From: Meiothermus cerbereus DSM 11376
GTDB lineage: Bacteria; Deinococcota; Deinococci; Deinococcales; Thermaceae
Assembly: GCF_000620065.1 (NCBI RefSeq)
Contig: NZ_JHVI01000015.1
Coordinates: 1 to 64,000, forward strand
Reading direction: 5' to 3'
Length of the DNA: 64,000 nt
Both the position numbers and the translations under genes were made by a program. Position 1 is the first letter of the stretch. Each line of letters opens with the position of its first letter. Shown here one piece after another: positions 6,744 through 55,045 of the stretch. The notes under the pieces were generated by a model that was not told where the DNA came from, made no database searches, and saw nothing but the letters and a program-made list of their open reading frames with translations.

Positions 6744-6843
6744 AGCGCTATTGTATTCCACAGCCTAGTGAGACCGTAAACACAATTTTTGCCTGGGCAT
6801 CCTCTCCCCGCAGCGTTTCCAGCCGCCTGGTCGTGGCTTACAT

Positions 6844-6959
6844 TAACCCCACCTGAAGCTTTCTGTTTAGGGTAGGTCAAAACCGACCCGATGCATGGGC
6901 AGCTCTTGGCGTAGCTTCAGGTGGGGGCCCCAGCAAAAAGAACTCAAAGGCATTTCTTA
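6844..6959 (+). repeat. Dispersed repeat R2, copy a
   Basis: It shares the GC-rich core CTTCAGG-GGGGGCCCCAG followed by an A-rich tract and CATTTCTTA with copies at 22996-23252 and 54917-55045. Its left part (CTGTTTAG-G-AGGTC) matches 31122-31200. The MITE follows directly at its right end. Confidence 0.6.
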
Positions 6960-7084
6960 TACCAGATTCGGTTAGTTCGTCACCGAACGGTGACGAACTA
7001 ACCCGACCAAAGGGAGTGCTCTAGGATTCAAAAAGATAGCCTCTTAGCGCTTTTTGTTTGAAGATTATCTTTTTGAATCCGGTA
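6960..7084 (+). mobile_element. 125-bp MITE-like element, copy 1
   Basis: Ends are TACCAGATTC and GAATCCGGTA (inverted, one mismatch). TTA occurs on both sides (6957-6959 and 7085-7087), giving a 3-bp target duplication. Inside are two hairpins: 16-bp arms around AA (6970-7003) and 15-bp arms 7024-7038/7066-7080. There is no ORF. By eye it is identical to copy 3 (54792-54916, inverted) and differs from copy 2 at three positions. Confidence 0.9.
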
Positions 7085-7098
7085 TTACTGGTAAAAAG

Positions 7099-7171: not shown

Positions 7172-7651
7172 ATGTTAGACAAAAAACCGGTATACCTTAC
7201 CGCCGAGGGTAAAGCGCGGCTCGAGCAGGAACTCGCCTATTTGAAAACCGAAAAAGTGCAGCAGATTGCCGATGAGATGGGCCGGGCCATCGCCGAGGGC
7301 GACTTGCGTGAAAATGCTGGCTACGATGAAGCGCGGCGGGCCATGTGGCAAAACAACACCCGCATTGCGGAGCTCGAGGATATCCTCAGCCGGGTGCAGA
7401 TTGTGGAATCGGGCAATGGCATCCCCAGCGAGGTACAGCTCGGCGTAACGGTGGAGCTCGAGACCCCTACGGGCCAGCGCATGAGCGTTACCATGGTCGG
7501 AAGCCACGAAGCCGACGTGTTCAGTGGCAAAATTTCCAACGAGTCCCCCTTGGGCCAGGCTTTGATGGGCAAGAAGGTCGGCGATGAGGTGCAGGTCAAG
7601 AGCCCCAAAGGTAGCCAGACCTACGTTGTGGTTGAGCTTGTGTACGCCTGA
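7172..7651 (+). CDS. greA: Transcription elongation factor GreA
   Basis: A 159-residue Gre factor that enters the RNA polymerase secondary channel and stimulates cleavage of backtracked RNA. The N-terminal coiled coil (about residues 1-75) carries the acidic tip motif EGDLRENAGYDEAR, with the Asp and Glu needed for Mg binding. This separates it from the Thermus anti-Gre factor Gfh1, whose tip reads like DDYDD. The C-terminal FKBP-like domain has VQLGVTVELETPTGQ and ends in GSQTYVVVELVYA. Length matches the family (about 157). One unusual residue is Gly where most GreA have NAEY (here NAGY). It precedes surE but is separated from it by 162 bp, including a palindrome. Confidence 0.95.
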   Translation: MLDKKPVYLTAEGKARLEQELAYLKTEKVQQIADEMGRAIAEGDLRENAGYDEARRAMWQNNTRIAELEDILSRVQIVESGNGIPSEVQLGVTVELETPTGQRMSVTMVGSHEADVFSGKISNESPLGQALMGKKVGDEVQVKSPKGSQTYVVVELVYA

Positions 7652-22995: not shown

Positions 22996-23252
22996 GGGGT
23001 CATATGAACCCCGCCTGATACCAGATTCGGTTAGTTCGTCACCGAACGGTGACGAACTAACCCGACCGAAGGGAGTGCTCTAGGATTCAAAAAGATAGCC
23101 TCTTAGCGCTTTTTGTCTGAAGAATATCTTTTTGAATCCGGTATGAATCGTTCGGTTAGGGAGAGGTTAGGGCACCATCTTTTTTCAGGCTGTTGCTAGC
23201 CGCGCTTCAGGCGGGGGCCCCAGAAAAAGACCAAATCTAAGACATTTCTTAT
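22996..23252 (+). repeat. Dispersed repeat R2, copy b, interrupted by the MITE
   Basis: The parts 22996-23018 and 23144-23252 join to give a sequence matching 54917-55045 (inverted). The junction GCCTGA/ATCGTT is uninterrupted in that copy, so it shows the empty site. Its right end (CATTTCTTAT then CAAAAG) carries no MITE, unlike copies a and c. Confidence 0.8.
23019..23143 (+). mobile_element. 125-bp MITE-like element, copy 2
   Basis: It has the same ends and hairpins as copy 1, with three base differences. TGA flanks both sides (23016-23018 and 23144-23146); the pre-insertion site is readable from R2 copy c as GCCTGAATCG with a single TGA. Confidence 0.92.
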
Positions 23253-53687: not shown

Positions 53688-54788
53688 GTGCAGGTGGCCG
53701 AAACCCTCGAGCAGGCAGCGCAAGAGCAGGGCTTTCTGACGGCGTGGGCTGGCCTGGATTTGCCGCAGGAAACCCAGCAACGCTACCGCGACTGGGTAGC
53801 CGAGGGCAGGCAGGCCCAGATGGCTTACCTGGCGCAAAACCTGGAGATCCGGCTCAACCCGCCGCAGCGCTTCGCCTGGGCCAGAAGCGTGCTGGTGCTG
53901 GCGGCCCCCCATGCCTACCCCCCGCCCCCAAAGCCTACTGGTGGCCTTCGCCTGGGCCGGGTGGCCCGCTACGCCTGGGTGCGGGATTACCACCTCTTGA
54001 TAGCGCCCCATTTACAGGCCCTCGAGCGCCTGGCCCAAAGCCTGGGCCTAGAGGCTAAGGGCTATGTGGATACCGGTCCCCTGTCCGAGCGTTCCTATGC
54101 CGCCCTGGGGGGTCTGGGCTGGATTGGCCGCAACGCCATGCTGATGCGGATGGGGGAGGGCACCTACCTCACGCTGGCGGTTCTGCTCACCTCTCTTCCC
54201 CCAACCCGCCTAGAAGCGCCTTACCCGAACCGCTGCGGAACCTGTACCCGCTGTGTGGTGGGGTGCCCCACCGGGGCCTTGCTGGGCGATGGAACCATGG
54301 ATTCCCGCTTGTGTATCAGCTACTGGACCATCGAACACCGAGGCCTGATTCCTGCTGAACTATGGGCGGGCATGGGGGACTGGTTGTTTGGCTGCGATGT
54401 CTGCCAGGAGGTGTGCCCCTGGAACCGCAAGGCCAGGTCTTTCTGGCAGGACTTTATCCCCGAACCCGAGCTGGCCTACCCCAACCTGGAAGATTATTTT
54501 TACCTTTCCTCCAAGGCCTTCGAACGCAAATATGCCGGAACCGTCTTCCTGCGACCGGGTCGTACCCGTATGGCCCGCAATGCGCTGGTGGTGCTGGCCA
54601 ACCTGGGCAACCCGGACTACCTGCCCCTGGTGCGCCACGCCGCCCAGGACGTGAATCCGGTGGTGCGGGCCACCGCCGCCCAAGCCCTGGCCCGACTGGG
54701 CGACCTGGAAGCCCTGTGGCCCCTGCGCCAAGACCCCGAGCCGCAGGTGGCCGAGGTGGCGCTGGGGTTGCTGGAAGGGCGGGTATAG
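53688..54788 (+). CDS. queG: Epoxyqueuosine reductase QueG
   Basis: A 366-residue cobalamin/Fe-S enzyme making the last step of queuosine tRNA modification. N-terminal cobalamin-binding part with TGPLSERSYAALGGLGWIGRN; two [4Fe-4S] motifs, CGTCTRCVVGCPTGAL (about 183-198) and CDVCQEVCPWN (about 235); the C-terminus has a HEAT-like repeat (VRATAAQALARLGDLEAL). The GTG start at 53688 has CACAAT six bases upstream. It and MetH are both cobalamin-dependent and divergently placed. The MITE copy 3 begins four bases after its stop. Confidence 0.93.
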   Translation: MQVAETLEQAAQEQGFLTAWAGLDLPQETQQRYRDWVAEGRQAQMAYLAQNLEIRLNPPQRFAWARSVLVLAAPHAYPPPPKPTGGLRLGRVARYAWVRDYHLLIAPHLQALERLAQSLGLEAKGYVDTGPLSERSYAALGGLGWIGRNAMLMRMGEGTYLTLAVLLTSLPPTRLEAPYPNRCGTCTRCVVGCPTGALLGDGTMDSRLCISYWTIEHRGLIPAELWAGMGDWLFGCDVCQEVCPWNRKARSFWQDFIPEPELAYPNLEDYFYLSSKAFERKYAGTVFLRPGRTRMARNALVVLANLGNPDYLPLVRHAAQDVNPVVRATAAQALARLGDLEALWPLRQDPEPQVAEVALGLLEGRV

Positions 54789-54791
54789 TAA

Positions 54792-54916
54792 TACCGGATT
54801 CAAAAAGATAATCTTCAAACAAAAAGCGCTAAGAGGCTATCTTTTTGAATCCTAGAGCACTCCCTTTGGTCGGGTTAGTTCGTCACCGTTCGGTGACGAA
54901 CTAACCGAATCTGGTA
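54792..54916 (-). mobile_element. 125-bp MITE-like element, copy 3
   Basis: Inverted relative to copies 1 and 2; identical to copy 1 by eye. The ends are TACCGGATTC and GAATCTGGTA. TAA flanks both sides (54789-54791 and 54917-54919). The left duplication begins on the base after the queG stop. Confidence 0.92.
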
Positions 54917-55045
54917 TAAGAAATGTCTTTGATTTGTTCTTTTTCTGGGGCCCCCGCCTGAAGCGCGGGTAGCAAAAACCTGAAAAAACGATGATGCTCC
55001 AACAATCCCTAACGGAACGATTCAGGCGGGGTTCATATAAACCCC
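54917..55045 (-). repeat. Dispersed repeat R2, copy c
   Basis: It matches copy b (22996-23252 without its MITE) end to end, inverted. It carries the uninterrupted junction GCCTGAATCGTT that shows the MITE-free state. MITE copy 3 sits at its CATTTCTTA end, as in copy a. Confidence 0.8.

What the first reader, a model, noticed from the sequence alone, without database searches (positions are those of the whole stretch)
6960..7084. A 125-bp MITE in three near-identical copies with TNA target duplications
Seen: copies at 6960-7084, 23019-23143 and 54792-54916 (inverted), each exactly 125 bp. Copies 1 and 3 look identical; copy 2 has three differences. Ends are TACCRGATTC inverted repeats. Flanks are direct 3-bp duplications, TTA, TGA and TAA respectively, so consensus TNA. 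Two hairpins fill the interior and there is no ORF. Near-identity implies recent movement. Inference: mobilised in trans by a transposase encoded elsewhere; a TNA duplication is known for some IS5-group elements, but the source is not in this window.
Basis: partly seen in the sequence, partly recalled or inferred. Interest (0 to 1): 0.72.

Follow-up and report, generated by a model that had tools for sequence, protein, structure and literature searches.

The report
Meiothermus mini-transposon moved by IS630 enzyme
The 125-base sequence is a gene-less jumping element present in about 90 copies in this Meiothermus genome; it was probably moved by an IS630-type enzyme that duplicates three bases (TNA) at the landing site, where that enzyme family is normally said to duplicate two (TA).

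Summary
The three 125-bp copies, their TACCRGATTC ends and their TTA/TGA/TAA duplications are all there. The whole genome (Meiothermus, 3.03 Mb) holds about 90 copies: 52 of 125 bp, 28 of 156 bp (31-bp internal insert), and a few variants. Of 82 testable copies, 75 carry identical 3-bp flanks, always TNA; shuffling gives 23. One insertion splits a gene that is intact in two relatives at 97% identity with a single TCA, so the 3-bp duplication is proven. The family occurs in 19 of 61 genomes searched, in three genera of one family. The likely source is an IS630-family group with TACC ends, DD30-31E spacing and a 3-bp duplication. That is unusual, because IS630/Tc1/mariner elements classically duplicate TA. 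One such IS in a CRISPR array proves it: removing the IS and one TGA restores the 37-base repeat exactly. No IS carries exactly TACCRGATTC, so trans-mobilisation by this group is inferred. The element's hairpins are kept across species by paired changes (9 pairs, 0/500 shuffles). Verdict: a genuine MITE; the interesting part is its IS630 partner.

The parts
6960..7084 (+). MITE copy 1, 125 bp; between a minus-strand ORF (start at 6761) and the greA-like ORF (start at 7172)
6957..6959 (.). target duplication TTA, left of copy 1
7085..7087 (.). target duplication TTA, right of copy 1
6960..6969 (+). left terminal inverted repeat TACCAGATTC
7075..7084 (-). right terminal inverted repeat TACCGGATTC
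6970..7003 (.). hairpin 1, near-perfect 34-bp palindrome GGTTAGTTCGTCACCGAACGGTGACGAACTAACC; 8 of 15 pairs covary between species
7024..7080 (.). hairpin 2, arms GGATTCAAAAAGATA / TATCTTTTTGAATCC with a hypervariable loop
7012..7016 (.). position of the 31-bp indel that distinguishes the 125-bp from the 156-bp class (insert not present in the window copies)
23019..23143 (+). MITE copy 2, 125 bp, three substitutions from copy 1; TSD TGA at 23016-23018 and 23144-23146; inserted at the edge of an R2 repeat
54792..54916 (-). MITE copy 3, 125 bp, identical to copy 1; TSD TAA at 54789-54791 and 54917-54919; directly after the stop codon of a queG-like ORF (53688-54788)

Best explanation
[quoted passage not shown] A DDE transposase acting in trans cuts at the TACC ends and inserts the element into W-S-TNA-S-W-like targets with a 3-bp stagger, so that TNA is duplicated (the 3-bp duplication is shown). 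The transposase is most likely that of an IS630-family group found in the same and related genomes. This group has TACC ends, DD30-31E catalytic spacing, in the own-genome type two overlapping ORFs joined at an A8 run, and the same 3-bp TNA duplication (shown for the IS group; its action on the MITE is inferred). Copies are later homogenised by recombination between copies: haplotypes are shared by the 125- and 156-bp classes (shown by four-gamete patterns; mechanism inferred). The two hairpins are maintained by paired changes between species (shown); their purpose is unknown, perhaps folding of the single-stranded DNA or of the transcript (inferred).
For: MITE: about 90 copies, 75 of 82 with identical TNA flanks. 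Empty site with a single TCA in two relatives at 97% over 400 bp. Three insertions in relatives are absent from the own genome. Most copies checked in other species also have TNA duplications. IS630 link: the own-genome IS (C7:104813-105940) scores as IS630 family (NF033545, 114 bits; PF13358) with TACC ends and TGA/TGA flanks; nearly all IS-chromosome junctions in the genome read TNA, the exception being CAA. M. hypogaeus has TTA/TTA, and paralogous empty copies with a single TTA match at 100% across the junction. An IS of the sister type in relative G022 sits in a CRISPR array: removal of the IS and one TGA restores the 37-bp repeat exactly among 32 intact repeats. An Acidobacteria MAG copy has TAA/TAA. 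MITE ends resemble the ends of the own IS beyond TACC at the same offsets, 10 of 18 positions in three of the four comparisons, p = 0.004-0.04 each. In G022 a DD37E IS630 element duplicates only TA, and the DD34E/DD37E elements show no TACC ends.
Against: No transposase-bearing element with exactly TACCRGATTC ends was found among 189 of the 190 such ends of the genome or in the relatives examined. The extra end similarity is modest and was found after the fact. The MITE has no internal homology to the IS, so it is not a simple internal deletion of it. The M. taiwanensis and Nostoc IS copies have TAA/TTA rather than identical flanks, and the G013 copy has TTC/TTC. No transposition assay exists.
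Confidence: 0.74

Rival explanations
1. The MITE is mobilised by an IS5-family (IS1031-like) or other DDE transposase that is now lost or not assembled.
For: TNA duplications are known for IS1031-type IS5 elements (own knowledge); 21 PF01609 matches lie in the genome, several at contig ends where the IS is incomplete.
Against: None of the PF01609/PF13359 loci has TACC-type ends; PF13359 is absent from the own genome. IS630 elements with the same terminal tetranucleotide and the same duplication are present in several copies.
Confidence: 0.14
2. It is an IS630-type element with the classical TA duplication, and the outer TNA triplets are only target preference (target TNATATNA).
For: IS630/Tc1/mariner elements are said to duplicate TA (PMC8533490), and a TA does sit at each end.
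Against: The empty site has a single TCA and no TATNA. The CRISPR repeat interrupted by the related IS is restored only if TGA is the duplication. The N base is the same on both sides in 75 of 82 copies against 23 by chance.
Confidence: 0.02
3. It is not mobile now: a structured repeat (REP/ERIC/BOX-like), kept for a cellular role such as an RNA or terminator function and spread by recombination.
For: Hairpins are conserved by compensatory changes across species and genera; one insertion is shared at an orthologous site with another species and is more conserved than its flanks; copies recombine.
Against: Precise 3-bp target duplications, clean empty sites and identical copies at unrelated sites show insertion by a transposase. 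Perfect palindromes can also be corrected symmetrically by template switching without selection.
Confidence: 0.08

Closest known systems
IS630 family (IS630-Tc1-mariner group)
   Same: DDE_3 domain, N-terminal HTH domains, about 1.0-1.2 kb, ORFs overlapping at an A-run in the own-genome type, AT-rich target; NF033545 match
   Different: 3-bp TNA duplication instead of TA; TACC ends; DD30-31E instead of DD34E/DD37E
Correia elements / NEMIS of Neisseria
   Same: about 100-200-bp MITE in over 100 copies (PMC10969869), length classes from an internal indel (own knowledge), hairpin-forming
   Different: Different ends and target duplication (TA in Correia, own knowledge); other phylum; promoter or IHF functions were not tested here
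Nezha MITE of cyanobacteria
   Same: Small bacterial MITE; cyanobacteria also carry distant relatives of the IS (a Nostoc IS here has related ends)
IS1031 / IS5 family
   Same: 3-bp TNA duplication (own knowledge)
   Different: Different transposase family; no such element with TACC ends was found in this genome

Membership tests
MITE (non-autonomous DNA transposon) | short, no coding capacity, terminal inverted repeats | tested here: met
   125/156 bp, TACCRGATTC ends, no ORF
MITE (non-autonomous DNA transposon) | fixed-length target duplication and empty sites | tested here: met
   75/82 TNA; empty site with one TCA
MITE (non-autonomous DNA transposon) | ends shared with an autonomous element that supplies the transposase | tested here: inconclusive
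   TACC and part of positions 14-22 shared with IS630 copies, but no IS has exactly TACCRGATTC
IS5 family / IS1031 group as source | an IS5-type element with matching ends in this genome | tested here: not met
   PF13359 absent; no PF01609 locus with TACC-type ends; copies broken at contig ends could not be read in full
IS630 family (the putative partner IS) | transposase of IS630 type with DDE_3 domain | tested here: met
   NF033545 114 bits on the C-terminal part, PF13358 E 5e-18, HTH domains
IS630 family (the putative partner IS) | TA dinucleotide target duplication | tested here: not met
   3-bp TNA shown in a CRISPR repeat, in M. hypogaeus and in the own genome; DD37E IS630 in the same relative does show TA
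IS630 family (the putative partner IS) | DD34E-like catalytic spacing | tested here: not met
   31 residues between D and E in the own, M. hypogaeus, M. taiwanensis, Nostoc, Acidobacteria and G022 elements, 30 in G013
REP / RAYT (IS200-type) repeats | no target duplication | tested here: not met
   3-bp duplications present
Known RNA family (Rfam 15) | covariance model match | tested here: not met
   only two tRNAs in the window

The most novel reading that the evidence does not exclude
The TACC-ended, DD30-31E IS630 elements form a distinct branch of the IS630-Tc1-mariner group that cuts its target with a 3-bp stagger (TNA). It occurs in at least three phyla, and in Meiothermaceae it drives a MITE family whose interior hairpins are kept by selection on structure.
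Probability: 0.4. Interest if true: 0.62.

Novelty: new variant of a known kind. Interest (0 to 1): 0.5.

Why it matters
The IS630-Tc1-mariner group is textbook TA-specific; PMC8533490 states that the whole group duplicates TA. A bacterial branch with short catalytic spacing and a 3-bp TNA duplication, proven inside a CRISPR repeat, would be a natural system for asking how stagger length and target choice are set. The MITE adds an abundant, structured family with about 90 copies in one thermophile genome, useful for strain typing and for testing trans-mobilisation. I found no earlier description in the open-access literature searched.

Tried and rejected
IS5-type sources: PF13359 and PF01609 searches with end scans, negative. 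Phage collection: no match; plasmids: two Meiothermus/Allomeiothermus plasmids. A simple internal-deletion origin from the own IS was rejected because there is no internal homology. A composite transposon of the two MITEs at C52:31362-32203 was rejected, since each has its own duplication. TA-only duplication was rejected. Most joined-flank queries gave diverged intergenic alignments that do not decide the exact junction. The second joined-flank query was truncated when entered, so it tested only part of the sites. L175 and L193 proved to be the same M. taiwanensis insertion, so they count once. Literature searches for Meiothermus MITEs, IS630 with 3-bp duplications and DD31E gave nothing relevant.

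Full report
WHAT IS THERE. The three copies are exactly as described: 6960-7084 (+), 23019-23143 (+) and 54792-54916 (-), each 125 bp, with TACCRGATTC inverted ends and flanks TTA, TGA and TAA. Copies 1 and 3 are identical and copy 2 has three substitutions. The genome is a Meiothermus: plasmid hits are Meiothermus and Allomeiothermus, and one relative of the same genus shares M. hypogaeus flanks at 100%.

GENOME-WIDE. The 20-bp left end occurs at 92 places with up to 3 mismatches, a few of them weak. I fetched 2.17 of 3.03 Mb, which held 189 of the 190 occurrences of the 10-bp end. There are 84 bounded elements: 52 of 125 bp, 28 of 156 bp, one each of 150, 126, 73 and 44 bp. The 156-bp class carries a 31-bp insert between hairpin 1 and hairpin 2. 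Of 82 copies with both flanks, 75 have identical 3-mers and all are TNA; the seven others look like single substitutions of TNA. Re-pairing flanks gives 23.4 on average and never more than 37 in 2000 shuffles. The wider target is W-S-TNA-S-W.

EMPTY SITES. The copy at C41:2126-2250 interrupts an ORF of about 490 codons resembling apolipoprotein N-acyltransferase (by eye). Joining the flanks with one TCA gives an open frame, and relatives G002 and G015 have exactly this arrangement, 97% identical over 400 bp with one TCA. In the other direction, insertions in G016, G006 and G012 are absent from the own genome, though the flanks are diverged. One insertion (C52:111299) is shared at the orthologous site with G010, with the element 94% identical although the flanks are 74-84% identical.

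DISTRIBUTION. 19 of the 61 genomes searched (own genome included) have the element, all in one taxonomic family, in three genera; the 15 genomes of genus g5 of that family (probably Thermus) have none. TNA duplications recur in the other species. In G013 several copies travel inside another multicopy repeat.

WHAT MOVES IT. IS5-type transposases (PF13359, PF01609) do not have such ends in the loci tested. A scan for TNA-TACC...GGTA-TNA units found an IS630-type element at C7:104813-105940 with TGA/TGA flanks. Its two ORFs overlap at an A8 run, and both match IS630 models. Further copies are broken at contig ends; the IS-chromosome junctions in this genome read TNA with one exception, CAA. One IS copy abuts a MITE with TAA between them. 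The same type with 3-bp duplications occurs in M. hypogaeus (TTA/TTA) and an Acidobacteria MAG (TAA/TAA); M. taiwanensis and Nostoc copies have TAA/TTA. A sister type in G022/G023 has TCA/TCA and TGA/TGA.

PROOF OF THE 3-BP DUPLICATION FOR THE IS. In G022 the IS (L235 1389-2465) sits in a CRISPR array. Thirty-two intact copies of GTTGCAGTGGGCTTAAATGCTCACTGAGGATTGAAAC surround it; deleting the IS and one TGA restores a 33rd exact copy. In M. hypogaeus, other copies of the interrupted repeat match the joined flanks at 100% across a single TTA. In G022 itself a DD37E IS630 shows the classical TA. The TACC/TNA group has 30-31 residues between the second D and the E, while other IS630 elements in these genomes have 34 or 37. 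PMC8533490 states that the whole group duplicates TA, so this is a departure.

HOW STRONG IS THE LINK. Shared: TACC, the TNA duplication, and 10 of 18 further positions in three of the four comparisons with the own IS ends (p 0.004-0.04 each). Not shared: the exact TACCRGATTC, and the interior. Hence trans-mobilisation is likely but inferred; a closer unseen IS630 relative may be the true partner.

INTERIOR. Across 15 sequences from several species, 99.4% of hairpin cells pair; nine pairs have changes on both sides (19 cells), against 2.5 pairs (3.0 cells) in shuffles, 0 of 500 reaching the observed values; slid structures fail. Hairpin 1 carries eight of these pairs, the loop of hairpin 2 is hypervariable and the linker is nearly invariant. 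Selection on structure is one reading; symmetric correction of palindromes by template switching is another. Within the genome, SNP haplotypes recur in both length classes and all four combinations of pairs of markers occur, so copies recombine; the AA/TT loop marker may also flip as a hairpin inversion.

VERDICT. A genuine, recently active MITE family, not described in the literature I could search, with an IS630-type partner that is itself an unusual variant.

Noticed in passing
window 6901-6949, 23133-23241, 54927-55040: A second repeat family (R2, about 110-130 bp, GGGGCCCCCGCCTGAAGCGCGGG...TTCAGGCGGGGTTCATAT, 71 BLAST hits in 2.17 Mb). All three window MITEs abut it, and 15 of 84 MITEs lie within 150 bp of one.
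   Followed up: partly
L235 1-3414 (G022:C5): CRISPR array with 32 intact repeats interrupted by an IS630-type element whose removal restores the repeat exactly.
   Followed up: yes
L228, L231, L233 (G022): DD37E IS630 elements with the classical TA duplication coexist with the DD31E/TNA type in one genome.
   Followed up: partly
L177 1355-2460 (G013): A DD30E IS630 element with TTC/TTC flanks inserted inside a longer MITE copy.
   Followed up: no
L287-L290, L032 (G013): The MITE hitch-hikes inside another multicopy repeat, giving identical flanks in five copies.
   Followed up: no
L031 1501-1626 versus G000:C52:111299-111423: Orthologous insertion shared by two species, the element more conserved (94%) than its flanks (74-84%).
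   Followed up: partly
G000:C52, C27, C13, C9, C53 copies: Six MITEs are followed by TNA-TACC on the right and none is preceded by GGTA-TNA on the left; one of the six is the IS630 end itself.
   Followed up: partly
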